A DNA stretch of 64,000 nt from Chitinophaga sp. 180180018-3. GTDB taxonomy: Bacteria; Bacteroidota; Bacteroidia; Chitinophagales; Chitinophagaceae. The stretch's first letter is position 1, and each line of letters begins with the position of its first letter. The translations under genes were made by a program, and so were the position numbers. The stretch is from contig NZ_CP140772.1 in assembly GCF_037893185.1 (NCBI RefSeq), positions 4,464,001 through 4,528,000 on the forward strand, read 5' to 3'. Shown in pieces: positions 9,798 through 57,832 of this stretch. Under the pieces are notes generated by a model. It was not told the origin of the DNA. It did not search any database and saw only the letters and a program-made list of their open reading frames with translations.

Positions 9798-12284
9798 ATG
9801 AAGCAAAACCGGCTAAAAGCCATTCTTCCGCATCTGGCAGCCATAGGTATCTTCCTGTTGCTGGCAATGGTCTACTGCTCTCCCGCCCTTGAAGGCAAGG
9901 TTGTAAACCAGGCTGATATGAAGAATGTTGAGGGAATGGCCAAAGAGGCAAAGGACTACTATCAGAAAACCGGCGAATATGCACTCTGGAGCAACAGTAT
10001 GTTCTCCGGTATGCCTACCTATGTGGTCTATACCGGCGCTAGCGGTATTAATAAGGTAGCCTATATCCCCAAGTACCTGACCCTTTTTACTCCGGTTCCG
10101 GTAAACATGTTGTTCCTGGCGATGCTATGCATGTACCTGTTGCTATGTGTGCTCGACTTTAAATACTGGATCCGTATTATGGGTGCCATCGCGTTTGCAT
10201 TCTGTTCATATAATGTGATCCTTATCGACGTGGGCCACGTTACCAAAATGTACGACATCGCGCTGATGCCTGCCGTGCTGGCCGGTATTATTCTTACCTA
10301 TCGTGGCAACCTGCTTACCGGTGCGGCCCTGACCACACTGGCCGCCGCGCTGCTGATTTACTTCAACCACCTCCAGATGATCTATTACACCGTGATCATG
10401 GTGGCGGTGCTCGCAGTAGGTGCATTCATACACGCCTTCCGCGAAAAACAGCTGGCGCAATTTTTCAAAGCGTCTGTGCTCCTCCTCATCGGCGGCGCCC
10501 TGGCAGTGCTTACGGCAATGGATAACCTCCTGATCTTCCATGAGTATGCCGATTATACCATGAGAGGAAGTAAATCAGAACTGACCCTCGATAAAGACGA
10601 TATTACCCAGAAGAAATCTTCCGGGCTGGAAATAGAATACGCGTACGACTGGAGCTATGGTAAAGCCGAATCCGGCACATTCCTGATCCCCGGCTATGTG
10701 GGCAATTCTTCCGGGCAGCGCCTCAGCGCCGGTTCCAACTTCGGCCAGCAGATGATCAGTATTGGTGTTCCCGCTGCCCAGGTCGATCAGTTCCTTTCCC
10801 AACAAAAACTGCCGCTGTATTACGGCGCACAGTCGAAAGGCACTTCCGGCCCCGTTTATGTTGGTGCCATCATCTGCTTCCTTTTCGTATTGTCGTTGCT
10901 GTTAGTAAAGAGCTGGCACAAATGGTGGCTCATTGCTGTGACCATTATCGGCTTCATACTGGCCTGGGGGAAGAACCTCGGCTTTATCAATGACTTCCTC
11001 TTCTATCACCTGCCCATGTACAACAAGTTCCGTGCACCTGCACAGGCACTGGTACTCCCCTCCCTCACCTTTGTGGTGCTGGCCTGCTGGGGATTGCAGG
11101 AGGTAGCTGCCGGCAATCATACCAAAGAAGAGTTATTGAAAAAACTGAAACAGGCCCTGCTCATCACGGGCGGTTTTATCGTTGGTTTCTTCCTCATCAC
11201 CAATTTCTTCACAGGCTTCAGCAGCGCCAGCGATGCAGGCATGTTGCAGTACTTCTCCCAGATGATGGGCGGTGAAGAAAATGGCAAACTCCTGATACGC
11301 GCGCTGGAAAAGGATCGTAGCAGCCTGTTGCTGAAAGACAGCTTCCGCTCCGTTATATTTATCCTGATTGCTGCCGGCGCCATCTGGGCTTATCTCCAGG
11401 GCAAACTGAAGTGGATGCCTGCTGCATTGATCATCGTTGCTGCCGTAACGATCGACCTGATCGGCGTAGACAGGAACTACCTCAACAACGATAGCTTCGT
11501 GGACGATATCAGCTTCATGCAGGAACTGCAGCCTTCCGCAGCCGACCAGCAGATCAGGCAGGATCCTGATCCTTATTACCGTGTGCTGAACGTAGCCACT
11601 GCTCCGTTCGATGATGCTTCTCCATCTTACTTCCACAAAAACATCGGTGGCTACAGCCCCGCCAAACTGTGGATCTACCAGGATCTCATCACACATCAGA
11701 TCTCCAAAAACAACATGAAGGTGTTGAATATGCTCAACGCCAAATATATCATCGTGCCCGACCAGAAAACCGGTCAACCTGTCGCGCAGCGCAACCCTGA
11801 CGCCTATGGCAATGCCTGGTTCGTGAAGGATATCGTTTGGGCGCCGGACGCCAATACGGAAATGAAAACGCTGGATTACCTGAATACACGCGATTCTGCG
11901 GTCATCGACAAACGCTTCGAAAAACAACTGGGTACCTTCAAACCCGGCGCCGATAGCAGCGCTTCCATCAAACTCACGCAGTATGGCCTGAACAAACTGG
12001 AATATACCTCCCATAACAGCCAGGATGGTTTCGGCGTGTTCTCTGAAATCTACTACCCTGCCGGCTGGGATGCTTTCATCGATGGCAAGCCGGTAGATAT
12101 CATCCGTACCAACTATGCACTTCGCGGTTTCAAAATACCCGCCGGCGATCATAAGATAGAAATGAAATTCTATCCCAAAACCTTCTTCACCGGCCTGAAA
12201 ATAGCCAGCACGTCCTCAACGCTGCTGCTGATACTCGTGTTGCTCGCGTTTGCATGGCAAGCCTATAAAGAATTAAGAATATAG
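9798..12284 (+). CDS. YfhO family membrane protein
   Basis: An 828-residue integral membrane protein of the YfhO family (PF09586). The N-terminal two-thirds carries a dozen or more hydrophobic helices, with an early periplasmic or extracellular segment NQADMKNVEGMAKEAKDYY. The C-terminal third is soluble, ending in one last helix and the tail KELRI. YfhO proteins resemble GT-C type glycosyltransferases and have been linked to glycosylation of teichoic acids in Bacillus; the role in Bacteroidota is not established. The last four codons and the stop lie inside the arm of a long palindrome, so the C-terminal tail is encoded by repeat sequence. Confidence 0.88.
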   Translation: MKQNRLKAILPHLAAIGIFLLLAMVYCSPALEGKVVNQADMKNVEGMAKEAKDYYQKTGEYALWSNSMFSGMPTYVVYTGASGINKVAYIPKYLTLFTPVPVNMLFLAMLCMYLLLCVLDFKYWIRIMGAIAFAFCSYNVILIDVGHVTKMYDIALMPAVLAGIILTYRGNLLTGAALTTLAAALLIYFNHLQMIYYTVIMVAVLAVGAFIHAFREKQLAQFFKASVLLLIGGALAVLTAMDNLLIFHEYADYTMRGSKSELTLDKDDITQKKSSGLEIEYAYDWSYGKAESGTFLIPGYVGNSSGQRLSAGSNFGQQMISIGVPAAQVDQFLSQQKLPLYYGAQSKGTSGPVYVGAIICFLFVLSLLLVKSWHKWWLIAVTIIGFILAWGKNLGFINDFLFYHLPMYNKFRAPAQALVLPSLTFVVLACWGLQEVAAGNHTKEELLKKLKQALLITGGFIVGFFLITNFFTGFSSASDAGMLQYFSQMMGGEENGKLLIRALEKDRSSLLLKDSFRSVIFILIAAGAIWAYLQGKLKWMPAALIIVAAVTIDLIGVDRNYLNNDSFVDDISFMQELQPSAADQQIRQDPDPYYRVLNVATAPFDDASPSYFHKNIGGYSPAKLWIYQDLITHQISKNNMKVLNMLNAKYIIVPDQKTGQPVAQRNPDAYGNAWFVKDIVWAPDANTEMKTLDYLNTRDSAVIDKRFEKQLGTFKPGADSSASIKLTQYGLNKLEYTSHNSQDGFGVFSEIYYPAGWDAFIDGKPVDIIRTNYALRGFKIPAGDHKIEMKFYPKTFFTGLKIASTSSTLLLILVLLAFAWQAYKELRI

Positions 12285-12393
12285 AAAGAAGAATTAAGAA
12301 TGAAGGGCGAAGACCTAAGCGAATGTATAATAACCACACTCGCTTAGGTCTTCGCCCTTCATTCTTAATTCTTCTTTCTATATTCTTAATTCT
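12269..12393. repeat. Core palindrome A (54-nt perfect arms)
   Basis: Arms 12269-12322 and 12340-12393 are perfect inverted copies with a 17-nt loop. The inner end holds the core GCGAAGACCTAAGCG; the outer part is built from GAATTAAGAA-type words. The left arm overlaps the last codons and stop of the YfhO-like gene, and the right arm ends 2 nt before the stop of the convergent glycosyltransferase gene. Confidence 0.95.
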
Positions 12394-12395
12394 CC

Positions 12396-13151
12396 TCAGT
12401 ACCGTTTCCTGAAGAAATACCTCACGCCTATCCACAAATGGTTCGTGAAATTCGGTAAATGCCCGTAATACCTGCTAAGTATCCTGTAGCGTTCCTTCCA
12501 GGCTTTCTGCTGATGCTGTTTGGAAGTACCGCCTACACGAAAGCGGGATATCACCTGATGCGTGTTGCAGATGTTATGAGATGCTTTCAGGGTGCGGATC
12601 ATCCAGTCGATGTCAGCGCAGATCCTGTATTGCAGATCATACAGAGGGCTCAGGCTGCGGCGAACAATATAAGCCTGATGAGATACTACCATGCCGTGTT
12701 TCAGGCTTTTCCAGTTGAGTTGTTCCGGCACTTTGTGCGGCGTTTGTTCAGAGCGTAAGCCGATATCGTTGCCGTTTTCATCCATGAACATAGCTTCTCC
12801 ATAATACACGTCGGCATTGGGGCCGGAGGCAAATACACGGCGGATAACATCATTATCAGCGAGTACATCGTCGGCATTGAGGAACAGCAGGTAATCGCCG
12901 GTGGCGAGTTGCATGCCTTTGTTCATCGCATCGTATAAGCCTTTATCTTTTTCAGAGATCACTTTGGCTATTCCGGAGCGATATTTTCCAATTACGCCCA
13001 TGGTGTTATCCTTAGAGGCGCCATCTATGATAATATATTCAATATGCGGATAGCTTTGCGCTAACACGCTCTGAATGGTATTTTCAATAAATTTTTCGGC
13101 GTTAAAACATACGGTGACAATGCTTAATACCGGTGAAACAGTGTCGTTCAT
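12396..13151 (-). CDS. GT2 family glycosyltransferase
   Basis: A 251-residue GT-A fold transferase. Family features are LSIVTVCFNAEKFIENTIQS at the N-terminus, IIIDGASKDNT, EKDKGLYDAMNKG and the metal/nucleotide-binding FLNADD. It transfers a sugar from a nucleotide donor onto a lipid-linked or other acceptor at the cytoplasmic side. Last gene of a five-gene minus-strand operon; it begins 11 nt after the upstream GT4 gene. The sugar cannot be named. Confidence 0.9.
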   Translation of the reverse strand: MNDTVSPVLSIVTVCFNAEKFIENTIQSVLAQSYPHIEYIIIDGASKDNTMGVIGKYRSGIAKVISEKDKGLYDAMNKGMQLATGDYLLFLNADDVLADNDVIRRVFASGPNADVYYGEAMFMDENGNDIGLRSEQTPHKVPEQLNWKSLKHGMVVSHQAYIVRRSLSPLYDLQYRICADIDWMIRTLKASHNICNTHQVISRFRVGGTSKQHQQKAWKERYRILSRYYGHLPNFTNHLWIGVRYFFRKRY

Positions 13152-13162
13152 GCTGTTGTTGA

Positions 13163-14404
13163 TTACGATGTGCGCTGTATCAGCTGAAACAGGCGATAAT
13201 ACTGATCCGCTACTACCTTCATCCCAAAATGCTGTGTGATATAGGTTCTGGCGGTTTGCCCGAATTGTTGGCAGGTAGATGGCTGCTGCAATAGTTCCAG
13301 CGTGCGGGTAGCAAACAGCTCATGATTTCCCGGGGGGATTACATAACCTGTAGCGCCGTCCAGCACTATTTCCCGGCAGCCACCTACATCAAAAGTAATG
13401 CAGGCTGTTTCGCAGCTGCCTGCTTCTATCAGCACATTGGGCAGGTTATCTGCCTTTGTCGGATAAAAGAAGATATCGCTGGCGCTGTAACATTGCATCA
13501 TTCGCAGGGTGTCTTTCACATAGCCGGTGTATACACACTGCAGATGTTTGAACTCTCCTGGCAACCTGTCGCGGCCTATCATGAGCAGATATACGGTATG
13601 ATCCAGCTGTTCATCGAGCAGCCGGAGGATCTTCATTAATTCAGCCCCGCCTTTGAATTCACTGGCAAACAGGCGCTCGGATACGAAGGTGATCACCGGC
13701 GCGGTAGCTGGTAAGCCCAGCGATGCTCTGGCTGCCGCCTTGTCCTGGGGCCGGAAGTAATCGGTATCGATGGGATTGGGAATGTGATACAGCGGCTTTT
13801 GCCTTGTAAGCGGACTTTCCACCGTCATGTCATACAACCAGCGGGACGGTGATATGATGTGCAGATTGCTTGCCTCATACAGGCGCTGCTTACGCCGCAT
13901 CAGGTAGTTGCCGGTGGGCAGTCCCATCGCCGGCGCATGCCGGTGCTCCGATTTTCCTGCACGTCCGTTTTTCCAGCTCGTATCTCCGAAAGTATGCGCA
14001 GCATTGCCGGTTAGTGCCCACATGTCGTGCAGCGTCCATGCAACCGGCGCCAGGGCCGACAGCCTTGGCAATAAACCGGCATCGAAATAACCGCCGTGAA
14101 TATTGTGCAGGCTGATCACATCGGGCCGGAAGCTTTGCGCGGCGCGCATGATAGCGTTAGTAGAAAACGGAAAATAAAGATATTGCAGCCCTAGCTTGTT
14201 ACTCACCACATTCCATCCACGCTCTGTAACATGCCTGAACGTACCCGGCCGGGTCAGGGTCACATTCGGGGCGGAAGTATGCCGGTCGCCCACCACGAAG
14301 TGATTCTCCGTCTGATGATAAACAGCAAGCCCCTCCGCAATCCGTTGCGCTGCAATGGCTGCTCCGCCACTGTTTTCATACTTATTGATAAATAATACTT
14401 TCAC
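13163..14404 (-). CDS. GT4 family glycosyltransferase
   Basis: A 413-residue GT-B fold transferase. The N-terminal half starts MKVLFINKYENSGGAAIAAQ, a usual glycine-rich opening, and includes DVISLHNIHGGYF. The C-terminal half has the donor-binding motif NVLIEAGSCETACITFDVGG with the paired glutamate region of GT4 enzymes. It begins one codon-length after the deacetylase gene (3-nt gap) and is 11 nt from the following GT2 gene, so all are one transcript. It likely extends a surface polysaccharide. Confidence 0.9.
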   Translation of the reverse strand: MKVLFINKYENSGGAAIAAQRIAEGLAVYHQTENHFVVGDRHTSAPNVTLTRPGTFRHVTERGWNVVSNKLGLQYLYFPFSTNAIMRAAQSFRPDVISLHNIHGGYFDAGLLPRLSALAPVAWTLHDMWALTGNAAHTFGDTSWKNGRAGKSEHRHAPAMGLPTGNYLMRRKQRLYEASNLHIISPSRWLYDMTVESPLTRQKPLYHIPNPIDTDYFRPQDKAAARASLGLPATAPVITFVSERLFASEFKGGAELMKILRLLDEQLDHTVYLLMIGRDRLPGEFKHLQCVYTGYVKDTLRMMQCYSASDIFFYPTKADNLPNVLIEAGSCETACITFDVGGCREIVLDGATGYVIPPGNHELFATRTLELLQQPSTCQQFGQTARTYITQHFGMKVVADQYYRLFQLIQRTS

Positions 14405-14407
14405 CGG

Positions 14408-21715: not shown

Positions 21716-22033
21716 ATGGCTTTAGAATTCACTGACGCGAACTTTGAAACAGAAGTTCTGAACTCAGATAAATTAACTGTTATCGACTTTTGGGCAGAAT
21801 GGTGTGGCCCATGTCGCGCTATCGGTCCCGTAATTGAAGAGCTGTCTAAAGACTATGCGGGTAAAGTAAACGTTGGTAAAGTGAATGTAGATCAGAATCC
21901 GCAGCTTTCTATCAACTACGGTATTACCAGCATTCCTGCTATCCTTTTCGTGAAAGGTGGCCAGGTGGTAGACAAACAGGTAGGCGCAGTGCCTAAATCT
22001 GTGCTGGATAAAAAGATCCAGGCAAACCTCTAA
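21716..22033 (+). CDS. trxA: Thioredoxin
   Basis: A 105-residue cytoplasmic disulfide reductase with the active site WCGPC (residues 29-33), the cis-proline loop TSIPAILF and the usual length. It reduces protein disulfides using thioredoxin reductase. The start [10 protein letters not shown] is standard. A long core palindrome begins 5 nt after its stop codon. Confidence 0.97.
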
Positions 22034-22038
22034 TGGGG

Positions 22039-22153
22039 GAATGACGAATTAGGAATGTAGAATTAAGAAATAGAGCGAAGACCTTAGCGAATAATTTCAA
22101 ATCGCTAAGGTCTTCGCTCTATTTCTTAATTCTACATTCCTAATTCGTCATTC
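22039..22153. repeat. Core palindrome B (52-nt perfect arms)
   Basis: Arms 22039-22090 and 22102-22153 are perfect inverted copies with an 11-nt loop. The core is GCGAAGACCTTAGCG, differing by one base from copy A, with the matching change in the other arm. It lies between two genes of the same direction, starting 5 nt after the trxA stop, where it would suit a terminator. Confidence 0.95.
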
Positions 22154-28188: not shown

Positions 28189-28447
28189 AAAACTGATTTT
28201 ATAAGATTGTTTTGGAAATACTAATGGAATAAAGCTAGGCTACAGTATAAAGCAGTTATTCCCCCGGGTACAACATTTTACCAGATAAAAGTTGCCCGGG
28301 ATTACTTGTTGAAGTCTTTAGGACAGGATAAGAACGGCAACAGAAACCCGCTCGTGCATTTGGCTGCACAAGGAGTTTGATATGTGGGTAATATGAAAAT
28401 TGCCGGATTCAATTATTACTAATTGTATCCGGCAAATATAAGAAATT
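28189..28447. other. Upstream region of the glutamate-synthase-like gene, two hairpins
   Basis: No gene seen. At 28264-28301 CCCGGGTACAAC pairs with GTTGCCCGGG around an A/T-rich inner stem. At 28400-28435 two 16-nt arms (TTGCCGGAT...CAATTA) pair with a single mismatch around TTAC. They could form RNA structures in the leader of the minus-strand gene or end upstream transcripts. The core palindrome C follows directly. Confidence 0.55.
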
Positions 28448-28561
28448 AATTAAGAATAGGGAATGAAGAATTAAGAAACAGAGCGAAGACATTAGCGAAT
28501 AACGTTTCAATCGCTAATGTCTTCGCTCTGTTTCTTAATTCTTCATTCCCTATTCTTAATT
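28448..28561. repeat. Core palindrome C (51-nt perfect arms)
   Basis: Arms 28448-28498 and 28511-28561 are perfect inverted copies with a 12-nt loop. The core is GCGAAGACATTAGCG, two bases different from copy A with matching changes in the other arm. The right arm contains the last codon and the stop of the haem lipoprotein gene. Confidence 0.95.
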
Positions 28562-30841
28562 CTTCGGCAATTCCGGCGCTGTGAAAGGCTTCTGGCGCCC
28601 TGCGTTTTGTTTGCGTACCTGTTGTATATCGGCTGCTGTTATTTTATCAGCCTTATTTTTCCAGGCGCTGCGCAGGAAAGTAAGCAGTTGTGCAATATCT
28701 GCATCATTGAACTCATCGCTGGCGCCGATTCCCGGCATATCGCCGTTGATTTCAGGCGCCTTGTAGGTTTTGCCGTGCACGTCTACCGGTCCGGTAAGAC
28801 CATAAAGCACAATAGAGATGAATGCATTTTTATTGCCGTTCACCCAGTTGCTTTCATTAAGTGGCGGCGCCATGGAGGCGATGCCATCTCCGTTTTTACC
28901 ATGACAGGTCTGACAAACGGTATTAAATATCTTATAACCCCGTGGCAGCGATTTCTTTAACACCTCCATCTTCTTAGCGTTGGCCATATCATCCATTCCT
29001 CTCAGCACTGTTTCGAGCTGACGGCGCAATACCAGCGCAGTATCGGGGTTCCAGGCTGTTACCTGTTTCAGGAATGCCGCTTCACGACGGGCGGCATTAT
29101 TCACCAACGCTGCCGATACATAACGGTTACGGGCATACGCTTTCATCAGTTTATCTTCCAGGCGGGAAGCAGCTGCTTTATCTGCTTTGGCAACTGCGGG
29201 CAATATGAATGCCACCGCGGGGGCCAGGTACGGATTATCGGACAATGAGTCGAGTGCTTTGATGCCCGGCGCACTGACGATGGATGGTAACGCTGCCAGG
29301 CCCTGTATTTTGAGTGCTGCATCGGATTGCTGCCAGATTGTTTCCAGATCAGCATTATTCAGCTGGTGCAGGCCTTCCAGTGTCCAGAGCGCATGTATGC
29401 GGGTGAGTGGCGCATGGCTGTCTTTCAGCATATTCCGCAGCTCCGGCGCCATATCCTTCAATTGATGGTCAATGATCAGTTGTTGGGCTTTATCTCTCAG
29501 CGCACCATTGGGGCTATGCAGCAGCGCGGCCAGCGCAGCGGGCGTAAGCTCGATCTTTGCCGGCTGCGGATGGCTGCCGGCCGGAACGATCCTGTAAATG
29601 CGGCCGCAGTTCAGCGGCAGCGTGAGTTTACGCATCTTTATTTCATTCTTCAGATATTCGGTCAGGTAGGTTTTATGTTGCAGTATACCACGATACATAT
29701 CCACGATATACAGTGCTCCATCTAACCCGGTAATCAGGTTCACCGGACGAAAACGCTCATCGGTGCTGGCCAGGAACTCCTTGTGCTGATAAGCCTGTAC
29801 CCCGCTCACCACGAAGCTACTGTCTTTCAGCAGATTTCTTTTAATCAGGTTAGCGGAAGGCTCGGCCACGAAGGCGTTGCCCGCGTAAGGGGCCGGCAAC
29901 AGTGCACCACGATAGATCAACGGCCCACAGGCAGCAGTGAAATTCACGAGGCGCAGACTATCGTCCAGCGAGCCTTTCTGATAGCCACGGTTCACCCCCG
30001 GCGTAGGCCGTATCGGGTAAGTGCGGTTATCCGGTACGATCTTCTGGTTAAAGCCGGCAGTGTTCTGCTGCTCCGGATTGGTACCTCCGAGTCCTGGTGG
30101 AAAGTAATCGCCCAGAAGGTTTTCGGAGTTATTATTATAAAAAAGACGTCCCTGATCATCCTGGGTAATACCCCACTGGCCCCTGAAATGAGTGGACTCC
30201 TTCAACCATTTGTTGCCCACCTTACGGTAACGCCTATCTGATTTGGCATTATAAATCCAGTTATCCATGGCACGGAACAGGCCATTTGGCTGATGTTCCA
30301 CGTTACCTCCGGCTGCGTACTGGTCGTCGACCAACGTCTTCTTCCCTGCTTTATCGTGATTGTTTTCAATAAACCACAGCTGGGGCGGCGTAGCTACCAG
30401 CACGCCATTCTCCACCAAACAAACGGCCCTGGGCAGTACGAGAGAGTCCAGGAATACGGTCCGTTTATCCATGATACCGTCGCCGGTGGTATCTTCCAGT
30501 ATAACAATCTTCCCATTGGGCTTATCTTCTCCGGTACCGGCCGTATCCGGCATAAAGCCGGTCATTTCCACTGCCCACAGCCTGCCTCTTTCATCGAAGG
30601 TCATGGCCACGGGAGCAACTATCATTGGCTCCGCCGCTACCAGCTGCACTTCCAGGCCCTTATCCACCTCCATATGGGTAATGGCTGTTTTGGCGTCCAG
30701 CACCGGCGACTCCGCAAATTGTTGACGCATGGCCAGCGAATCTTTTTCGCGGCTGTTTGATTGTTGTTGTGTCGTGTTCCCCCCACAGGCATAAAGGCCT
30801 AACGACAATGTGGTAATAAACAGATAATGAATACGTTGCAT
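28556..30841 (-). CDS. PVC-type haem-binding lipoprotein (membrane-bound dehydrogenase-like, cytochrome c domain)
   Basis: A 761-residue lipoprotein (lipobox LYAC, Cys19). An N-terminal beta-propeller-like region starts with VQLVAAEPMIVAPVAMTF and RLWAVEMTGF, a middle alpha-helical part has HEAT-like repeats (residues about 440-620), and a C-terminal cytochrome c domain carries CQTCH (residues 643-647) with a likely Met ligand in GDMPGIG. This layout is common in Planctomycetes and Bacteroidota and is assigned to periplasmic sugar or alcohol dehydrogenation, though substrates are mostly unproven. Its last codon and stop lie within a palindrome. It is divergent from the nucleoside transporter gene. 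Confidence 0.88.
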   Translation of the reverse strand: MQRIHYLFITTLSLGLYACGGNTTQQQSNSREKDSLAMRQQFAESPVLDAKTAITHMEVDKGLEVQLVAAEPMIVAPVAMTFDERGRLWAVEMTGFMPDTAGTGEDKPNGKIVILEDTTGDGIMDKRTVFLDSLVLPRAVCLVENGVLVATPPQLWFIENNHDKAGKKTLVDDQYAAGGNVEHQPNGLFRAMDNWIYNAKSDRRYRKVGNKWLKESTHFRGQWGITQDDQGRLFYNNNSENLLGDYFPPGLGGTNPEQQNTAGFNQKIVPDNRTYPIRPTPGVNRGYQKGSLDDSLRLVNFTAACGPLIYRGALLPAPYAGNAFVAEPSANLIKRNLLKDSSFVVSGVQAYQHKEFLASTDERFRPVNLITGLDGALYIVDMYRGILQHKTYLTEYLKNEIKMRKLTLPLNCGRIYRIVPAGSHPQPAKIELTPAALAALLHSPNGALRDKAQQLIIDHQLKDMAPELRNMLKDSHAPLTRIHALWTLEGLHQLNNADLETIWQQSDAALKIQGLAALPSIVSAPGIKALDSLSDNPYLAPAVAFILPAVAKADKAAASRLEDKLMKAYARNRYVSAALVNNAARREAAFLKQVTAWNPDTALVLRRQLETVLRGMDDMANAKKMEVLKKSLPRGYKIFNTVCQTCHGKNGDGIASMAPPLNESNWVNGNKNAFISIVLYGLTGPVDVHGKTYKAPEINGDMPGIGASDEFNDADIAQLLTFLRSAWKNKADKITAADIQQVRKQNAGRQKPFTAPELPKN

Positions 30842-30991: not shown

Positions 30992-32254
30992 ATGGAACGC
31001 TTACAGGGCATCATAGGCATTGTACTTATTCTCGGCATTGCTTTTCTATTCTCCAATAACAAAAAGAGGATCAATTACAGGCTGGTGTTTAGTGGTTTAG
31101 GATTACAGGCGTTGATTGGTATCCTGGTATTCAAGGTGCCCGTTATCACGAAGTTCTTTCAGTTGGTAGGCGATGCGATGGGTAAGCTGGAATCCTTTGC
31201 CCGTCAGGGTGCAGCGTTTGTATATGGAGGCATCGGCGTTTCGCAGCCCGACGGTTTATTTAAGGACTATGCGGGTGGAGGTTTTGTATTTGCATTTAAT
31301 GTAACAGCCACCATCATCCTGGTGTGTGTGCTGGTGGCGGTATTATACCACTATGGCATCATGCAGCGTGTAGTGGCGGTTATTGCCAGGGCCATGAATT
31401 TTGTGATGCGGGTAAGCGGCGCTGAAGCGCTGAGCAACGTAGCCAGTGCATTTGTGGGCCAGGTGGAAGCACAGGTAATGATACGCCCTTATTTATCCAG
31501 CATGACTAAAAGTGAGATACTGGCTTCCATGAGCGGCAGCCTTGCCTGTATTGCAGGTGGTATCCTGGTGGTATACGTAAACATGGGTGCGCAGGCAGGT
31601 ATGCATATTGCCCCATTCCTGATCACGGCCAGCCTGATGGCGGCTCCGGGCGCGCTGGTTATCTCCAAGATTGTATTTCCGGAAACAGAGGAAAGTGTTA
31701 CGATGGGTCGTGTTAAGATGGAAGTAAAAAGTAACTATACCAACGTCATCGACGCTATTTCACATGGCGCCGGCGATGGTTTTAAGATAGCCATGAACGT
31801 TATAGCGATGCTGATTGGTTTCATCGCGTTCATTGCGCTGATCGACTGGATACTGATTCACATCGGCCACTTATTCAATCCTAACTTCAACCTGAGCCTG
31901 GATTGGATCTTCGGACAAATATTTACGCCGATGGCCTGGGCAATGGGTGTTCCTTCAACGGATGTACAGAGCGTGGCCACCCTGCTGGGACAAAAACTGA
32001 CTATCAACGAATTCGTGGCATTTAAAAGTCTTACCAGCCACAATGTACCCGTACTATCTCAAAAAGGCATTGCCATTGTTACCATTGCCATAGCGGGTTT
32101 CGCCAACTTCAGCAGTGTGGGCATGCAGATCGGTGGTATCGGAGAACTGGCTCCCGACCGCAGATCCGACCTCGCCAGGCTTGGCCTGAAAGCCCTGCTT
32201 TGCGGAACATTGGCGTCTTATATGTCTGCAACGATAGCGGGAATACTGCTTTAA
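30992..32254 (+). CDS. NupC/CNT family nucleoside transporter
   Basis: A 420-residue inner-membrane protein of the concentrative nucleoside transporter family, which imports nucleosides with H+ or Na+. Family marks are SNKKRINYR-type loop after the first helix, FVGQVEAQVMIRPYL, the conserved SMSGSLACIAGGILVVY, and GFANFSSVGMQIGGIG. The start was moved from an upstream in-frame codon at 30827, which overlaps the divergent lipoprotein gene, to MERLQGIIGIVLIL at 30992. Palindrome D starts at the base after its stop codon. Confidence 0.92.
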   Translation: MERLQGIIGIVLILGIAFLFSNNKKRINYRLVFSGLGLQALIGILVFKVPVITKFFQLVGDAMGKLESFARQGAAFVYGGIGVSQPDGLFKDYAGGGFVFAFNVTATIILVCVLVAVLYHYGIMQRVVAVIARAMNFVMRVSGAEALSNVASAFVGQVEAQVMIRPYLSSMTKSEILASMSGSLACIAGGILVVYVNMGAQAGMHIAPFLITASLMAAPGALVISKIVFPETEESVTMGRVKMEVKSNYTNVIDAISHGAGDGFKIAMNVIAMLIGFIAFIALIDWILIHIGHLFNPNFNLSLDWIFGQIFTPMAWAMGVPSTDVQSVATLLGQKLTINEFVAFKSLTSHNVPVLSQKGIAIVTIAIAGFANFSSVGMQIGGIGELAPDRRSDLARLGLKALLCGTLASYMSATIAGILL

Positions 32255-32372
32255 GAATTAAGAATAGAGAAAGAAGAATTAAGAAACAGAGCGAAGACCT
32301 AAGCGGATAGTTTTAAACATTTGCTTAGGTCTTCGCTCTGTTTCTTAATTCTTCTTTCTCTATTCTTAATTC
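32255..32372. repeat. Core palindrome D (50-nt perfect arms)
   Basis: Arms 32255-32304 and 32323-32372 are perfect inverted copies with an 18-nt loop. The inner end shares GCGAAGACCTAAGC with copy A, the outer arm words differ. It exactly fills the gap between two convergent genes: no base separates it from the nupC-type stop and one from the stop of the other gene. Confidence 0.95.
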
Positions 32373-32373
32373 C

Positions 32374-35300
32374 TTACTCCGGTTCCGTAAACTGATGTAA
32401 CGCGTCCGCTACTGCATTGGATTGGTTCACGAAGAAAAGGGCAAAGCTTATCAATGCCTGCTGGTCCGTGGCAGTAAACTGGATAGTCCAGTTCAGGTTA
32501 GCGGTATTGGAGGTGGTATCTGCAGCCATTTCAACAGTCTGGGTACAGCTGGTGATACCAGGATATCCGGCCAGTGCGTAGGAATAGCCTGCTGATGTGG
32601 TGTTATCCAATGTTTCGGTAATGGTGACGTCTTTACTGACTTTCAATGTGCGGGTGTTGCCCTGTACTGCATAATCGTTGTTCCAGAACGGATGCTGAAA
32701 CTGGCAGGCAAAGCCCTGCAGGGGTTGCAACAGCGCGATATTGTATTTCCAGGTGCGCTTAAAGGAAATGTTTCCATTGACATTGGAAATAGTCAACGGT
32801 ATGTACAATTCTCCGAAAACGAAATCAGATAAAGCGTCGGTATCCATGATACCTTTTGTGTAATTCACCAGCCAGCGGGCATTGGCGTCACTTCTGTTCT
32901 TAGGTGCGGCCACACTGCATACGAGGCCGGTATTTTTTGTGATGAAGTCGAGAATGGGGTTACTGCTGCCGTTTTGCAGGTTGCCACTAACAGTATGGCC
33001 GTAGTGAAGCGTGTAATTGAGCCAGGCTACCGTGGTGCCACGGGGTATTGCTACCAGCGACATCCTTTCAGCAAGGGAAACCACTTCACTTACTTTTTGT
33101 GCAGTCAGCGACTCATTATTCAGCAGGCTTTGCTGCAGGGCATCTTCCAATTGCTGCGACCTGTTGCGCAGATAGCTCATCGGATAACCATTGCCGCCGA
33201 TCATCTTTTTTTCCGGGGCAGAAAACCCTTTCCTGGCCCAGGCGGGGATATTATTCACCGAATCGAAACCTACCGGAGCACGGTTGGTATAGATCCTTTC
33301 CAATGGCGTCATATCTATCATCCGTTTGCCTTCGTTATAGATCTCCCGCTGCGTAAGTAATACAGGTGCATCTGCGCCGGTGTCCATCTTCACTGCCAAA
33401 ATAAAGGGATCTATGGGTTCCCCATCCTGCCATACCAGGTGGTTTTCTCCCAGCAGCAACGGATTCAGACCGTTCTTCGGCAACAGGTCCATCCGGATCT
33501 TTTTCTGATCGCTGCCGGTGATCTGACCCGGCGCGATATTAAACAGCGACTGCACTCCAGTAACAGCCAATTTCTGTTGCACGCCGCTGGTTTGCACGGC
33601 GCCAACAGATTGCATTACCTGCAGGGGAACGAAGCCCACACTAGTGTTTTTGCCCGCTGCCATTAAGGAAATGTCCACGCAGTTGACGCCCAGCTCCGGC
33701 AGTTTATCGAGCGGTTCCCGTAGTATCTGGGAGTCGTTCGTATGCTGCCATACCAGGGCACGGTTCAACTTCCTGTTACCATCAGCGGAATGCAGCATAT
33801 GCGTGCCTGTGCAACCGGATTCGTCTGTTGGAGGATCGGGATCTGTAGACAGCTGCACCTTGCCCCAACCCGCAAAACGAAGTCTTAGTAAAAAGGCATC
33901 CTGAAAAGTCTTGCCGCCATTGTCCCCTACCGGCGCTTCTTCATATACATCACTCTCCGGGTGATCCTGCTGATAGGTCAGGTCGGGCATTTTACCGGAA
34001 TATCCGCCATGCTCTCTGAATGGAAACTGCTTCTTGAATTCGCCTACAACCGACAAGGCATCCAACCTTGTCAGTATCATCGACCGCAGGTGCTCATCAG
34101 CGATGGCAGCAGTTTTGATGGGTTCTATCTGCGCAGCAGCCCATTTCGCTACTTCTTCCAAAGCATTAATGGCATAATAATCCATCTCATCATTAATGGC
34201 CTCGCTTCTCGCATCAGCTGTGTAAAGTTCCAGCAGTTGCCGTGCATATAACGGCAACACTGGCAGATCGGCCGGGTCGAAGGAAAATAGTTGTTGCTTA
34301 TTGATATTAAACATCGAGGCCAGTTCCAGGAACGGCCTGATGGCAATTGACATAATAGGCCAGGAAGCCAGCATTTCAATGGCTTCACGTCGCGATTCAT
34401 CAGCATTCCAGTCGTAGGTTTCATACATACGGGAAAGCCACATGATCATCACCAGGTAGCAAACATTGAACTGTTGCGGGATCTGGGCCGTTATTTTCTG
34501 GAGGTAAGCATTGTTGCCGGCATCCAGTGGTTTCCGGAATGCTTCAAATGTAAGGTTGCTTTGTTTGGCGAGGTCGTTTTCGTTCCGCAGGCCCATCATG
34601 ATCATGGCAAAACGGTAAAGGTGCGACTGGCGTATATTCTCGCAATCCTGCATCCATTGAGGGGTTGTATTTCCCCTGGAATTGTAATTGGCCTGATAGG
34701 CAAGCAGGTAAGCCCGGGGACCTCCCAATTCCGCTACCTTGGCCAGCAGGGCTGCTGCGCCTTCTTCGAAATGGGTAGCTCCCTCTCCTTCTTCCACGAT
34801 CTCTTTGATGATATCGTCCACTGTTTTTACATCTCTGTAAGAGCTGCCTGTATTTTTCTTGTTGAAGGTGGTAAAGTTTTTACTGCGATATACAGGGCCT
34901 ATGGGAAGAAAGCCTTCGCCGGCATATTCAGGGTTCAGTAACTCATTGACGAGATTTCTGTTATTATTCACTACCCATTGATTATGGAAGGCTTCCGCAT
35001 ACAGGGGTTGTATTCCCTGCTGATAAAAATCTGCGATCGACTGGAAATGCAGTTCTTCCAGCGAAGGCAGTCCTACGGCTGCTTCTGCCATTTCCCTGGC
35101 AACAGCAGCGGGTTGCTCCAGTGGCGGCAGTTTCATGTAGATATCGTATAGCCGGTCCGACAGGTTTTTACGTTTTTCATCGTCTGCTACATTGAACAAC
35201 ATGCTCTCGATCCGGAAGTTCATTTCCAGCTCAAACAGCTGTTTGAAAAGGGCCAGCGATGCCGGTCCGAAAGGATCCTGGTCTTGCAGCGCGTCAGTGG

Positions 35301-35742
35301 ATTCATACAGCACAAAGTTCTGTATATTCTCCAGGGTAAGCTTATTCACCGGGATTTGTACGCCCTTTCCATCATCTACCGGCACTTCTCCGATGGTGGC
35401 TTTCCAGTTACTGATGATCCAGTTGCCGGAAGTTTTGTCGCGTGGTGGCAGGGTAAAACAGGGCCTTTCTCCTATTCCTCTCAGCATACATTGCACATAG
35501 TGGAGATGCAACATTTCTTCGTGACCAACGAACAAAATGGATTGCTTCCACGATCGGGCCAGTTCAAACTGAACGGCGGCACGCCGGTTGTCTTGTCCAT
35601 CTTTTGTTTTCTCGAATTCCTGGGGAGTACTCTTGATACTGCACGCCGTGTAAAGGTAGGCGTTCAGCAGACAGTGTTCCAGCTGGGCAGCTTCCTGTAG
35701 AAGGGCCACTAGTAGCCGGTAAGCATCGTTTTTGGGCTTCAT
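32374..35742 (-). CDS. 1122-residue protein with N-terminal VioB-type ferritin-like domain
   Basis: The first 230 residues resemble the ferritin-like domain (PF12902) of VioB, the iminophenyl-pyruvate dimer synthase of violacein synthesis: LLQEAAQLEHCLLNAYLY (Glu17, Glu22, His23) and VGHEEMLHLHYVQ (Glu75, Glu76, His79) supply the usual metal ligands. A second helical section follows (about 330-560), and the last 550 residues are not recognised; they look beta-rich and end without a sorting domain. No signal peptide is visible. VioB itself carries this domain near its C-terminus and needs an amino-acid oxidase partner; none is nearby. Function unknown, perhaps a metal-dependent oxidative enzyme. 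Palindromes lie at both ends of the gene. Confidence 0.75.
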   Translation of the reverse strand: MKPKNDAYRLLVALLQEAAQLEHCLLNAYLYTACSIKSTPQEFEKTKDGQDNRRAAVQFELARSWKQSILFVGHEEMLHLHYVQCMLRGIGERPCFTLPPRDKTSGNWIISNWKATIGEVPVDDGKGVQIPVNKLTLENIQNFVLYESTDALQDQDPFGPASLALFKQLFELEMNFRIESMLFNVADDEKRKNLSDRLYDIYMKLPPLEQPAAVAREMAEAAVGLPSLEELHFQSIADFYQQGIQPLYAEAFHNQWVVNNNRNLVNELLNPEYAGEGFLPIGPVYRSKNFTTFNKKNTGSSYRDVKTVDDIIKEIVEEGEGATHFEEGAAALLAKVAELGGPRAYLLAYQANYNSRGNTTPQWMQDCENIRQSHLYRFAMIMMGLRNENDLAKQSNLTFEAFRKPLDAGNNAYLQKITAQIPQQFNVCYLVMIMWLSRMYETYDWNADESRREAIEMLASWPIMSIAIRPFLELASMFNINKQQLFSFDPADLPVLPLYARQLLELYTADARSEAINDEMDYYAINALEEVAKWAAAQIEPIKTAAIADEHLRSMILTRLDALSVVGEFKKQFPFREHGGYSGKMPDLTYQQDHPESDVYEEAPVGDNGGKTFQDAFLLRLRFAGWGKVQLSTDPDPPTDESGCTGTHMLHSADGNRKLNRALVWQHTNDSQILREPLDKLPELGVNCVDISLMAAGKNTSVGFVPLQVMQSVGAVQTSGVQQKLAVTGVQSLFNIAPGQITGSDQKKIRMDLLPKNGLNPLLLGENHLVWQDGEPIDPFILAVKMDTGADAPVLLTQREIYNEGKRMIDMTPLERIYTNRAPVGFDSVNNIPAWARKGFSAPEKKMIGGNGYPMSYLRNRSQQLEDALQQSLLNNESLTAQKVSEVVSLAERMSLVAIPRGTTVAWLNYTLHYGHTVSGNLQNGSSNPILDFITKNTGLVCSVAAPKNRSDANARWLVNYTKGIMDTDALSDFVFGELYIPLTISNVNGNISFKRTWKYNIALLQPLQGFACQFQHPFWNNDYAVQGNTRTLKVSKDVTITETLDNTTSAGYSYALAGYPGITSCTQTVEMAADTTSNTANLNWTIQFTATDQQALISFALFFVNQSNAVADALHQFTEPE

Positions 35743-35830
35743 GGTTATTTTTGGTTTAAGACAGTGCTATTGAGGGATACACTTCATGAACGGGGAATCA
35801 CACGGGGCTAAAGCTAAGGATTTATTTTAA

Positions 35831-35964
35831 AGAATTACGAATTAGGAATTACGAATTACGAAATAACGCGAAGACCTAAGCGGGTGATAACTATTATATA
35901 ATTATAGTCACTCGCTTAGGTCTTCGCGTTATTTCGTAATTCGTAATTCCTAATTCGTAATTCT
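35831..35964. repeat. Core palindrome E (52-nt perfect arms)
   Basis: Arms 35831-35882 and 35913-35964 are perfect inverted copies. The core is GCGAAGACCTAAGCG and the outer arm repeats GAATTACGAA and GAATTAGGAA words. The 30-nt loop is itself weakly palindromic. The right arm ends on the base next to the stop codon of the DUF4259 gene. Confidence 0.95.
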
Positions 35965-36360
35965 CTAGTCTAATCTCTTCAGCAAATCATTCTGCACATT
36001 CATCCAGGAATCGGTTTGTCCTTCGGTATCCCAGTAATTTTTCATTTCTGAAGCTGCCAGTATTTTATTAACAGCAGCGATAGCCTGGTTTCTGAGGGCA
36101 CGTGTACCGATCAGGTTCAGGACATCCAGCCGGTCAAGCGGATCTTCCGGGAAATCCTCGCTTGGCTTGCTTACGAGGGCAGCAACTACTTCTGCTGCCG
36201 CCAGCCCTTCTTCACAGTCCGGTATTTCAAGTTTTTCATTATTGTTGACGATACGTGCCAGTGTGTCTGTCACAAGACCCCCGTCTTTATTATCAATCAG
36301 ATCAAAAACCCAGTCCTGTGATCCATCATTTTCAAAATTCCTGGTGCCCCATGCGCCCAT
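35965..36360 (-). CDS. DUF4259 domain protein
   Basis: A 131-residue small acidic protein beginning MGAWGTRNFENDGSQDWVFD, the defining start of DUF4259, with further helices rich in Ala, Glu and Leu. No signal peptide or membrane segment; presumably cytoplasmic. The function of the family is not known. It sits between smc and the ferritin-like gene on the same strand, with palindrome E directly after its stop codon. Confidence 0.88.
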   Translation of the reverse strand: MGAWGTRNFENDGSQDWVFDLIDNKDGGLVTDTLARIVNNNEKLEIPDCEEGLAAAEVVAALVSKPSEDFPEDPLDRLDVLNLIGTRALRNQAIAAVNKILAASEMKNYWDTEGQTDSWMNVQNDLLKRLD

Positions 36361-40168: not shown

Positions 40169-40236
40169 GAAAATAGCTGTTAGCTGTCAGCTGTCAGTTG
40201 CCAGCCGCCGGCAACTGACAGCTAACAGCTATTTTC
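40169..40236. repeat. Word-built palindrome between divergent genes (AGCTGT type)
   Basis: Left arm 40169-40202 and right arm 40210-40236 match perfectly (27 nt) except that the left arm has one extra 7-nt word, CTGTCAG. The arms are built of TAGCTGT and CAGCTGT words. It lacks the GCGAAGAC core. It ends one base before the -7 promoter element of the FUSC gene. Confidence 0.88.
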
Positions 40237-52840: not shown

Positions 52841-52848
52841 AAATCATT

Positions 52849-54917: not shown

Positions 54918-54932
54918 GTGTATCGGTATTAG

Positions 54933-56237
54933 TTAAATACTGAATCCATCTTCGAGGACTACGCCTTTTTTCACAACAACGATGCCGTCTTTCACTGTAT
55001 ATTTTTCAAAATCCCCGTCGGCCAGGTGTTTACCGCCATTGATATGTACACCGTTGCCTATGCGGCAGTTTTTATCGATGATCGCGTTGTTGATCACACA
55101 GTTTTCGCCAATTCCCATGAGGGGATTGCCGGAAGCCCTGGATTCTTCAATTTCTTCGAGGGTCTGGTAATAGTCGCTACCCATGATATAGGCATTGCTG
55201 ATCACCGAGCCTTTACCGATACGCGTACGGATACCTACTACTACCCTTTCCAGCTTCTCTGCCATTATAATACAACCATCGGCGATCATTGTTTGGGCAG
55301 CGGTACCGGAAATTTTGGTAGGCGGCAGCATACGGGCACGGGAATAGATGACCTGCGATTTATCGAAGAGGTTAAACAGGGGGATATCGTCGGTCAGGCC
55401 GATGTTCGCTTCAAAAAATGACTGGATATTACCGATATCTGTCCAGTATCCTTCATACTGGTAGCTGAAGATCCGGCGTTTACTTTCGATGGCATGAGGA
55501 ATCAGCTGCTTGCCGAAGTCCGCGGCTTCCGGCTGTGCATTGAGCATGTCGAAAAGCACCTGCCTGTTGAAGATGTAGATACCCATACTGGCCAGGTATA
55601 TACGTCCTTCCCGCTGCATCTCCTCGCTTACTTCCGAAGCCCAGGGCGGCAAAGCAGCCTGGGAAGGCTTCTCTGTAAAGGAAACGATAGCGCCATTATC
55701 ATCTTCCTTTAAAATACCAAAATCGGAAGCATCCTTTCCACTAACAGGAATAGTGGCAATAGAGATCTCGGCATTGTTCTCAATGTGGTGCTTAATCATC
55801 TTCGCGAAATCCATCTGGTACAACTGGTCGCCGGAGAGAATCAGCACATACTTAAACTCGAAGTTCTCCATGTGATGGATACACTGCCTAACCGCATCCG
55901 CTGTACCCTGGTACCAGGTGGGGTTATCGGGGGTTTGTTCTGCTGCAAGAATATCCACAAAACCCTTATCAAAATTGCTGAAGTGATAAGTGTTTTTGAT
56001 ATGCTTGTTCAGGGAAGCGGAGTTGAACTGCGTGAGTACAAAAATGCGGTTCAGATCAGCATTCAAACAATTGGAGATGGGAATATCCACCAATCTGTAT
56101 TTACCGGCCAAGGGCACCGCGGGTTTCGAACGACGGCGGGTAAGCGGATACAGGCGGGTGCCGGCCCCCCCTCCGAGAATAATGGACATTACATCGTTTG
56201 TCATAAATGGAATTGGTTTTAGATGATCATCATTCAA
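54933..56237 (-). CDS. glgC: Glucose-1-phosphate adenylyltransferase
   Basis: A 434-residue enzyme making ADP-glucose from ATP and glucose-1-phosphate, the committed step of glycogen synthesis. The nucleotide-binding start is IILGGGAGTRLYPLTRRRSK (about residues 18-37) with KPAVPLAGKYRLVDIPISN; the substrate motif is SMGIYIFNRQVL, and a left-handed beta-helix closes the protein. The start could also be 11 codons later (MTNDVMSI). It lies 9 nt after glgA. Confidence 0.95.
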   Translation of the reverse strand: MNDDHLKPIPFMTNDVMSIILGGGAGTRLYPLTRRRSKPAVPLAGKYRLVDIPISNCLNADLNRIFVLTQFNSASLNKHIKNTYHFSNFDKGFVDILAAEQTPDNPTWYQGTADAVRQCIHHMENFEFKYVLILSGDQLYQMDFAKMIKHHIENNAEISIATIPVSGKDASDFGILKEDDNGAIVSFTEKPSQAALPPWASEVSEEMQREGRIYLASMGIYIFNRQVLFDMLNAQPEAADFGKQLIPHAIESKRRIFSYQYEGYWTDIGNIQSFFEANIGLTDDIPLFNLFDKSQVIYSRARMLPPTKISGTAAQTMIADGCIIMAEKLERVVVGIRTRIGKGSVISNAYIMGSDYYQTLEEIEESRASGNPLMGIGENCVINNAIIDKNCRIGNGVHINGGKHLADGDFEKYTVKDGIVVVKKGVVLEDGFSI

Positions 56238-56246
56238 AATTCTAAA

Positions 56247-57662
56247 CTATTTCAGGCTATTGTACATTTCCTGGTAATGCTGTGCGGAGCTTACCCAGGA
56301 GTGGTCAATACTCATGCCTCTCAGCCGGATCTCTTTCAGATGACTGGTGTCATGATACAACTCTATGGCTCTTTTAACGGAATAACAAACGTCCCAGGCC
56401 GAGGCCTGGTTGAAGCGGATACCCACTCCGTCTTTATCTCCAAAGTCGACTACAGTATCCTTCAATCCTCCGGTGCTACGCACCATTGGCACAGCGCCAT
56501 AACGCAGGGCATACATCTGATTGAGCCCGCATGGCTCTACTCTCGAAGGCATCAGGAGAAAATCGGTACCGGCATAGATCTGGTGCGACAGGGTTTCGTC
56601 GTACCCCAGGTGGATATTGAAGCCATAGCTGACCACCTGGCGGGTTTGCTGCAACGACCATTCGATATGCGGATCGCCGCTCCCCAGCACCAGGAAGTTC
56701 ACTTCCCCCGGCAATTCGTGCAGGGAACGGCCTATTATTTCAGGGAGCAGATCGGCGCCTTTATCGCCTACCAGTCGCCCGATGAACGACACCAGCGGCA
56801 GGGAAGCATCCAGGCCGAAACGCTCGCATAGTTGTAATTTATTGGCATGTTTGCCTTCCGTTACCGAACCCAGGTCATAGTTCTGCGGCAACATATGATC
56901 CGCCGCAGGGTCCCATACCACCGAGTCGATACCGTTGAGGATACCCATCATTTTCCCCCGTTCCGCGCTGATCAGGCTTTCCAGCCCGTTGGCGTTACTA
57001 TAAAGCTCTTCCAGGTATCCCGGGGAAACGGTGGTCACCCTCCAGGCACATTTGATGGCCGACGCCAGCGGGTTGATCGCCCCGTTCCAGTCGAGCATAC
57101 CCGACTTCCACAGGTCGAACGCAGGAAGCAGGTACTGCTGATCCCATCCAAACTGGCCCTGGTATTGGGCATTATGGATAGTCAATACCGTAGGAATATG
57201 CGACAGCCGCGCATATTTATATCCGTAATTGAGCAGGAAAGGCAATATTCCTGCCTGATGATCATGGCAATGAATCACATCAGGAGCATGATTCCATTCA
57301 TTGAGCCAGTCGAGCACCGCCACCTGGAAGCCCAGAAAACGCTCGGTATCATTCTGATAACCGTACACGCCCGTTGTATCCAGCAGGCCGGGAATATCGA
57401 GCAGATACAGGTCGAACTCCAGCTCGTTGCTGCGTTCCTTCAAAACATTAAAATGGTACCAGTTATGGCCCAGCCACATTCCGCCCTGATGCACGACATC
57501 AAATTCATGCGTATCATAATAACGGGTCCTGTAAGCAGGCACCACAACTTTGGCAAAATTACCTGCCTGATGCTGATACTTGGGGAGTGCTCCCACTACA
57601 TCCCCCAGGCCACCCACTTTGGCTACCGGGTAACATTCCGCGCTGACGTGTAAAATCTCCAT
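56247..57662 (-). CDS. glgA: Glycogen synthase
   Basis: A 471-residue GT5 enzyme adding ADP-glucose to the growing alpha-1,4-glucan. The donor-binding KVGGLGDVVG (residues 15-24) and the C-terminal SRVEPCGLNQMYALRYGAVP with RSTGGLKDTV are typical. First gene of the operon glgA-glgC-GH130. It diverges from the DUF72 gene; palindrome F fills part of the gap. Confidence 0.95.
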   Translation of the reverse strand: MEILHVSAECYPVAKVGGLGDVVGALPKYQHQAGNFAKVVVPAYRTRYYDTHEFDVVHQGGMWLGHNWYHFNVLKERSNELEFDLYLLDIPGLLDTTGVYGYQNDTERFLGFQVAVLDWLNEWNHAPDVIHCHDHQAGILPFLLNYGYKYARLSHIPTVLTIHNAQYQGQFGWDQQYLLPAFDLWKSGMLDWNGAINPLASAIKCAWRVTTVSPGYLEELYSNANGLESLISAERGKMMGILNGIDSVVWDPAADHMLPQNYDLGSVTEGKHANKLQLCERFGLDASLPLVSFIGRLVGDKGADLLPEIIGRSLHELPGEVNFLVLGSGDPHIEWSLQQTRQVVSYGFNIHLGYDETLSHQIYAGTDFLLMPSRVEPCGLNQMYALRYGAVPMVRSTGGLKDTVVDFGDKDGVGIRFNQASAWDVCYSVKRAIELYHDTSHLKEIRLRGMSIDHSWVSSAQHYQEMYNSLK

Positions 57663-57720
57663 GCTAATTAGTTGGTTGTCTTTATTAAGTTAAAATGTAA
57701 AAACTAGAAAACAAAGAAAA

Positions 57721-57832
57721 AATTAAGAATTGGGAAAGAAGAATTAAGAAACAGCGCGAAGACCCAGGCAAATAATACTATCCGCTTAGGTCTTCTCGCT
57801 GTTTCTTAATTCTTCCTTCCCAATTCTTAATT
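57721..57832. repeat. Core palindrome F (49-nt arms, imperfect)
   Basis: Arms 57721-57769 and 57784-57832 are inverted copies with four mismatches, three of them in the core (GCGAAGACCCAGGC against GAGAAGACCTAAGC). It lies between divergent genes, where no message should end. It is the only copy whose core no longer pairs perfectly. Confidence 0.9.

What the first reader, a model, noticed from the sequence alone, without database searches (positions are those of the whole stretch)
12269..57832. Family of six long palindromes sharing the core GCGAAGACCTAAGCG
At 12269-12393, 22039-22153, 28448-28561, 32255-32372, 35831-35964 and 57721-57832 lie inverted repeats with arms of 49-54 nt, five of them perfect. 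All carry the same inner core of about 15 nt, next to the loop, inside AATTAAGAA-type outer arms. No reading frame fills them and loops (11-30 nt) are unrelated. One copy per about 10 kb in a core-gene region would mean several hundred in a genome. This does not fit ordinary terminators, REP elements (short, GC-rich) or a known riboswitch.
Basis: seen in the sequence. Interest (0 to 1): 0.85.

Follow-up and report, generated by a model that had tools for sequence, protein, structure and literature searches.

The report
Copied perfect hairpins at gene ends
A Chitinophaga bacterium carries an estimated few hundred long mirror-image DNA sequences sitting right behind stop codons; the evidence suggests they are two-way stop signals for reading genes, and that their two halves are kept identical by copying one from the other.

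Summary
The palindromes are real. The window lies in an 8.13-Mb Chitinophaga genome. A survey of 2.06 Mb found 87 long inverted repeats (about 340 per genome if even). None lies inside a called gene. Of 84 placed, 41 are convergent, 40 codirectional, 3 divergent; 37 of the 40 codirectional start within 25 nt of the upstream stop codon. In relatives the same slot mostly holds an ordinary hairpin: 24 of 24 relatives read behind trxA, 22 with a T run. One convergent gap holds a palindrome with different arms in another species. One site shows a palindrome added between the stop codon and an older hairpin. Among 40 convergent gaps with a palindrome only 1 has a separate ordinary terminator, against 29 of 65 without. 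My reading: a dispersed family of bidirectional 3'-end terminators. Arms differ between copies at 10.6 of 36 positions but within a copy at 0.2, and 61 of 108 double changes have no G-U path, so arms are probably copied from each other in DNA. No RAYT transposase or target duplications were found; solitary cores are rare. Termination itself is untested (no RNA data). A DDE-transposase insertion sequence targets the arms. New variant of a known kind.

The parts
12269..12393 (.). Family palindrome (GAATTAA-type heptad arms, core GCGAAGACCTAAGCG) filling the gap between the convergent genes 9798-12284 (+, YfhO-like) and 12396-13151 (-, glycosyltransferase 2)
   Evidence: G086 has a palindrome with other arms in the same gap
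22039..22153 (.). Family palindrome 5 nt behind the stop of the thioredoxin gene 21716-22033 (+)
   Evidence: 24 of 24 relatives read have an ordinary hairpin there
28448..28561 (.). Family palindrome over the stop codon of 28556-30841 (-, DUF7133/cytochrome c)
   Evidence: site without palindrome in G002 and G004
28403..28432 (-). Older hairpin kept beyond the palindrome, matching the hairpin that G002 and G004 have behind this gene
32255..32372 (.). Family palindrome from stop to stop between 30992-32254 (+, nucleoside transporter) and 32374-35742 (-, ferritin-like domain)
35831..35964 (.). Family palindrome (GAATTAC-type arms) abutting the stop of 35965-36360 (-, DUF4259)
57721..57832 (.). 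Degenerate family member between divergently called genes 56247-57662 (-) and 57873-58763 (+)
436..504 (.). Second heptad type (TTTAGTC arms), convergent gap between 68-433 (+) and 500-970 (-)
40169..40236 (.). Inverted repeat with other heptad arms (TAGCTGT/CAGCTGT), called divergent; not of the GAATTAA family

Best explanation
The palindromes are a dispersed family of long, strand-symmetric 3'-end hairpins that occupy the terminator position of genes. Inferred action: when RNA polymerase leaves a gene on either side, the GC-rich core (GCGAAGAYNTNAGCG and variants) folds as a hairpin and the T-rich 3' arm follows it, so one element ends transcription from both directions and leaves a very stable mRNA 3' end. 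Inferred upkeep: the two arms are kept complementary by copying one from the other in DNA (template switching inside the hairpin during replication), and cores and arms are exchanged between copies. Shown: position, exclusivity with ordinary terminators, hairpins in the same slot of relatives, arm statistics. Not shown: termination, RNA 3' ends, single copying events, and how copies reach new sites.
For: Position: 41 convergent, 40 codirectional, 3 divergent, 3 at stretch ends, 0 in genes; 37 of 40 codirectional within 25 nt of the upstream stop, random placement mean 16.6, maximum 25 in 5000; 33 of 35 with stricter gene calls. Exclusivity: a separate ordinary terminator in 1 of 40 convergent gaps of 40-300 nt with a palindrome, in 29 of 65 without, p=1e-6. 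Same slot in relatives: trxA, 24 of 24 with a hairpin; YfhO/GT2 gap with a different-arm palindrome in G086, L159:14610 with an ordinary terminator in G074; reverse case, C. solisilvae palindrome L076:4765 against an ordinary terminator in G000; 28448 inserted before an older hairpin. Some members are themselves canonical terminators, e.g. L156:9457. Arms: 0.22 differences of 36 within, 10.6 of 36 between elements; 30 of 55 pairs changed on both sides, 0 of 500 shuffles as high; 61 of 108 double changes have no G-U path. Predicted RNA energy of the five strong window copies -82 to -97 kcal/mol on either strand.
Against: T-rich but not a clean T run: mean 7.9 T in the 15 nt after the core in 46 elements, and the strict terminator test is not met by most members. 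3 of 84 are divergent, 6 with stricter gene calls, 3 of 16 in G086, and window 57721 is one of them. A gap filled by a palindrome leaves little room for a second terminator, which weakens the exclusivity test. 87 of 206 convergent gaps are shorter than 40 nt and have neither signal but one. Wobble test for RNA selection not decisive: codirectional 21 G-U to 13 A-C, convergent 12 to 8. No RNA data were available.
Confidence: 0.68

Rival explanations
1. Selfish palindromic repeats (REP/MITE-like) that survive just behind stop codons because they do no harm there; any effect on transcription is incidental.
For: Copy number, dispersal and patchy occurrence in the genus (25 of 79 genomes with the heptad-arm pattern); two copies share an identical inner hairpin at unrelated sites; the 28448 site looks like a gain.
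Against: No PF01797 transposase; 0 of 53 elements have an abutting direct repeat of 4 nt or more; ordinary terminators are missing where the palindrome is; avoidance of genes alone would not bring 37 of 40 codirectional copies to the upstream stop.
Confidence: 0.17
2. They act after transcription: the hairpin protects mRNA 3' ends or is cut by RNase III, while termination is done by Rho or another signal.
For: Very stable stems; T runs are weak in many copies; protection by repeated stem-loops is proposed for Ype and Efa elements (PMC1590033, passages read).
Against: Strand symmetry and stop-to-stop filling of convergent gaps, and replacement of hairpin-plus-T terminators, fit termination more directly.
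Confidence: 0.12
3. The core is a DNA uptake signal; paired cores are used as terminators in passing, as in Neisseria and Pasteurellaceae.
For: Inverted pairs of a repeated word forming terminator hairpins are known for uptake signals (PMC1852404, passages read).
Against: 31 of 34 core words in the sample lie inside inverted repeats, so solitary copies are almost absent; the core varies, and the strict pair occurs 22 times, against generally 1,000 or more highly conserved copies for uptake signals.
Confidence: 0.03

Closest known systems
Intrinsic (Rho-independent) terminators, bidirectional form with A tract and T tract (passages in PMC1590033 and PMC1852404)
   Same: Hairpin behind the stop codon, strongest in convergent gaps, A-rich 5' and T-rich 3' side
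   Different: Arms of about 50 bp, repeated family, heptad arms, and a mixed T-rich arm rather than a clean T run in most copies
Repeated stem-loop families near gene ends, Ype of Yersinia and Efa of Enterococcus (PMC1590033, passages read; same group's catalogue PMC2267715, passages read, no Bacteroidetes name found in it)
   Same: Long dispersed stem-loops preferring the 3' side of genes
   Different: No sequence comparison was made here; core/arm exchange and near-perfect diverged arms are not mentioned in the passages seen
REP/REPIN elements with RAYT (PMC3733652, passages read; PMC12306157, passages read; PMC3116915, listing only)
   Same: Hundreds of extragenic palindromes, downstream of genes, IS targets
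   Different: REPs are 20-40 bp with GTAG or CGTC tags; here 100-135 nt, no tag, no RAYT
Uptake-signal terminators of Neisseria and Pasteurellaceae (PMC1852404, passages read)
   Same: A repeated word in inverted pairs forms terminators
   Different: Core almost never solitary here
Template-switch origin and upkeep of RNA stems (PMC8794818, passages read)
   Same: Perfect stems with simultaneous two-sided changes
   Different: Described there for RNA genes from reconstructed histories; here inferred from copies within one genome
TAACTGA heptamer repeats in Beggiatoaceae, Cyanobacteria and five Bacteroidetes (PMC4679880, passages read)
   Same: Intergenic 7-nt repeats, also in Bacteroidetes
   Different: Direct repeats mostly just upstream of start codons in the main species studied; here paired arms behind stop codons

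Membership tests
Intrinsic terminator | Hairpin immediately downstream of the gene | tested here: met
   37 of 40 codirectional copies within 25 nt; stop-to-stop in most convergent gaps
Intrinsic terminator | GC-rich stem followed at once by a T run | tested here: inconclusive
   Mean 7.9 T of 15 after the core (46 elements); strict test met by 5 of 40 convergent and 2 of 40 codirectional palindromes (the two codirectional read by eye)
Intrinsic terminator | RNA 3' ends at the hairpin | not testable with these tools
   No RNA data
REP/REPIN | RAYT (Y1 transposase) in the genome | tested here: not met
   0 matches of PF01797; rings in 5 of 14 controls
REP/REPIN | Unit of 20-40 bp with GTAG or CGTC tag | tested here: not met
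   Units 100-135 nt, ends GAATTAA/GAATTAC, read by eye in alignment of 16
MITE / IS-derived element | Target-site duplication | tested here: not met
   0 of 53 elements (score >=35) with an abutting direct repeat of >=4 nt
DNA uptake signal | Many solitary copies | tested here: not met
   31 of 34 core words inside inverted repeats
DNA uptake signal | Bias in DNA uptake | not testable with these tools
   Needs an experiment
Known structured RNA (Rfam 15) | Covariance-model match at gathering score | tested here: not met
   Window: only a tRNA at 2352-2422; 0 in seven other stretches

The most novel reading that the evidence does not exclude
Terminators that multiply without a transposase: gene-end hairpins are extended outward in heptad steps and repaired by DNA template switching, exchange cores and arms with other copies, and replace native terminators across a genome, perhaps permitted by loss of the hairpin nuclease SbcCD.
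Probability: 0.25. Interest if true: 0.85.

Novelty: new variant of a known kind. Interest (0 to 1): 0.62.

Why it matters
If true, a sizeable part of a genome's terminators can be replaced by one repeat family that does the terminator's job. The family is also a natural experiment on how perfect stems evolve: hundreds of stems in one genome, strongly diverged between copies and nearly perfect within each, which separates DNA copying from slow compensatory mutation. It bears on how genomes tolerate long palindromes, since no SbcD was found in this genome.

Tried and rejected
1. RAYT/REP origin: no PF01797.
2. Transposon with target duplications: 0 of 53.
3. Uptake signal: solitary cores almost absent.
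4. Heptads as a three-frame stop cassette: 10 of 54 arms have a stop in all three frames, shuffles give a mean of 13.8; rejected.
5. RNA-strand test by G-U against A-C mismatches: not decisive.
6. SbcD (TIGR00619) loss as permissive condition: not found in G000; over the cut-off in 2 of 15 genomes with 9 or more heptad-arm hits and in 22 of the other 64; p=0.13, kinship not corrected. G075 has SbcD and 90 hits. G002 and G004 lack SbcD and have almost no long palindromes in the parts read. SbcC (TIGR00618) gives two sub-cut-off hits in G000. Not established.
7. Orientation of the asymmetric inner core (AGTAAACGCGAAG type) to transcription: 6 against 4 in codirectional copies, no bias.
8. In print: searches listed no paper that by title or abstract start describes such palindromes in Chitinophaga; the library holds open PMC papers only and the lists are capped.

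Rows dropped: 3 of 87 elements at stretch ends from context counts; inverted repeats with N; 2 of 25 elements without a second measurable core from the arm comparison; 5 of 29 relatives' loci were not read, which took L085-L109. The covariation alignment holds 16 chosen full-length members of the 25 listed. The counts include three window elements twice.
Full report
WHAT WAS CHECKED. The six palindromes are present at the given places. Four have perfect arms of 50-54 bp; 35831 has one mismatch in 57, 57721 two in 44. The window is G000:C1:4464001-4528000 of an 8.13-Mb single contig. I read the genus as Chitinophaga because all 9 loci found by a scan of genome contigs for the exact core palindrome are of Chitinophaga solisilvae (the tool says that records of the own genome or one very near it may be left out). 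C. solisilvae is not this genome: one locus matches G000 at 81% and 73% DNA identity.

SURVEY. I searched for inverted repeats de novo in the window and 100 stretches of 20 kb spread over the genome (2.064 Mb, of which 15 kb in L183 is masked). There are 87 of score >=25, none with N, or about 340 per genome if the sample is representative. The stretches have a mean of 0.8 each, variance 1, so the spread is close to even and the window is richer than average. Of 111 repeats of score >=20, a motif script puts 67 in the GAATTAA/GAATTAC-arm class, 14 in a TTTAGYC-arm class, 8 with a related core only, and 22 unclassified; some of the 22 are visibly family members, others are unique sequences such as the 34-bp stem L027:12502. 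Heptad arms have a 7-nt period: identity 0.67-0.68 at lags 7, 14 and 21, and 0.21-0.41 at other lags (35 arms). Arm length before the core clusters at 35-39 nt, with smaller groups near 14-15 and 22-24.

POSITION. Genes were called with a codon-usage script of my own, so context counts rest on it. Of the 87, 41 lie in convergent gaps, 40 codirectional, 3 divergent, 3 at stretch ends, 0 in genes; the sample has 206 convergent, 1053 codirectional and 205 divergent gaps. In convergent gaps the element usually runs from stop to stop. In codirectional gaps 37 of 40 begin within 25 nt of the upstream stop; random placement in the same gaps gives a mean of 16.6 and at most 25. Stricter gene calls give 33 of 35, but raise the divergent ones to 6. 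In G086, G074 and C. solisilvae 6 of 6, 3 of 3 and 7 of 7 codirectional copies are within 25 nt; divergent are 3 of 16, 0 of 7 and 1 of 15 placed (the C. solisilvae loci were picked by the core). In 34 of 81 junctions of the GAATTAM class (loose script class) the palindrome reaches into the reading frame and the stop codon lies inside the palindrome.

ORDINARY TERMINATORS. In convergent gaps of 40-300 nt a strict hairpin-plus-T test finds a terminator in 29 of 65 gaps without and 6 of 40 with a palindrome (p=0.0025). Of the 6, 5 are the palindrome itself and 1 is separate; counting the separate one alone gives p=1e-6. A filled gap has little room for a second signal, so this test is not free of that effect. 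In codirectional gaps of 100 nt or more the figures are 55 of 391 without and 2 of 40 with. Some members are canonical terminators themselves: in L156:9457 the core is followed directly by TTTATTTC.

SAME SLOT IN RELATIVES. Behind trxA (window 22039) I read 24 of the 29 relatives' loci fetched: by eye all have a GC-rich hairpin there, 22 with an immediate run of at least 5 T. In G022 the hairpin is a 33-bp perfect unrelated palindrome; in G086 the stem is AGCGGAGATG, close to the core word. Another comparison used 116 genes with a palindrome at their end and gave 14 matches in held stretches of four relatives, two of them trxA again: the script scored 6 terminators, 2 palindromes, 6 neither. 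Several 'neither' show a hairpin without a T run when read by eye; one scored terminator (G002, DUF4259) overlaps the gene end and is doubtful. The two palindromes are one gap, YfhO/GT2 (window 12269), where G086 has GATTTTT-type arms around an ATGCAGCGGAGAT core. At L159:14610 G074 has an ordinary terminator whose stem is AAAGCGGAGATC. The reverse case is L076:4765 in C. solisilvae, where G000 has an 18-bp hairpin (one mismatch) followed by T7 on the sense strand. At 28448 G002 and G004 show the site without palindrome: in G000 it lies between the stop codon and an older hairpin that is still present at 28403-28432, and about 21 nt of the relatives' sequence are missing.

ARMS. The two arms of one element differ at a mean of 0.22 of 36 positions (5 differences in 23 elements); different elements differ at a mean of 10.6 of 36 (253 pairs). 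On an alignment of 16 chosen full-length members 99.3% of cells pair, 30 of 55 pairs changed on both sides, and no shuffle or slid control comes near. Of 108 double changes 61 cannot pass through G-U; only 10 cells are not Watson-Crick. L012 and window 22039 share 43 identical inner bases, loop included, with different arms, each perfectly paired. C. solisilvae carries the core GCGAAGACCTGAGCG both in GAATTAC-type and in ATTTTATTATTT-type arms. These patterns fit copying of one arm from the other, as proposed for RNA genes in PMC8794818 (passages read). No single event was observed.

GENUS. A heptad-arm pattern matches in 25 of 79 genomes including G000, with 0 hits of the reversed control; hits overlap, so they are not element counts, and the pattern does not demand a palindromic inside. 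G002 and G004, nearest by the dnaE-trxA query, have 1 and 3 repeats of score >=20 in 96 and 115 kb, none with heptad arms. A looser core pattern matches in 4 of 59 genomes including G000. The family has expanded in some lineages, with partly different cores and arms. G086 may be close to C. solisilvae, judged only by its similar arms.

VERDICT. The best-supported account is a repeat family of bidirectional 3'-end terminators whose arms are homogenised in DNA. Repeated stem-loop families near gene ends, terminators made of repeated words, and template-switch hairpins are each known. New, as far as the named searches show, is their combination: heptad arms, core and arm exchange, and occupation of the slot of native terminators.

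Noticed in passing
G000:C1, five full copies: 3191039-3192522, 3223824-3225306, 3305452-3306934, 3446912-3448394, 4153257-4154740; L040:2658, L041:8585, L069:16188: An insertion sequence with a DDE transposase (PF01609; the name IS4-like is recalled) sits in the heptad arms: 14 of 17 exact copies of its end (TTTTCCCCGGACAC) are followed within 12 nt by GAATTA/TAATTC-like words, and both ends of all five full copies are. REP-targeting insertion sequences, one of the IS4 family included, are described in PMC1525189 (passages read).
   Followed up: partly
L022:10290-11890: A second insertion sequence with an integrase-core transposase (rve) lies in the loop of a family palindrome, splitting it into two halves about 1.5 kb apart.
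   Followed up: partly
window 32255-35964: The ferritin-like gene 32374-35742 is bracketed by two family palindromes; in G002 and G004 its neighbours (nucleoside transporter and DUF4259 gene) face each other directly without it, so the gene was gained here or lost there.
   Followed up: partly
L027:12502, L074:604, L158:9553, L163:15705, L165:12157: Unique, non-family stems of 20-34 bp without mismatch also sit in convergent gaps, so long perfect 3'-end hairpins are not limited to the repeat family.
   Followed up: partly
G000 and genus: SbcD (TIGR00619) is over the cut-off in only 24 of 79 Chitinophaga genomes and not found in G000.
   Followed up: partly
L157, L160, L176, L177, L189, L034, L159; G034 hits: A second inner core, asymmetric (AGATAGTAAACGCGAAGATC..TTCGCTACTATCT), recurs within G000 and, similarly, in G034 with other arms; orientation to transcription is mixed.
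   Followed up: partly
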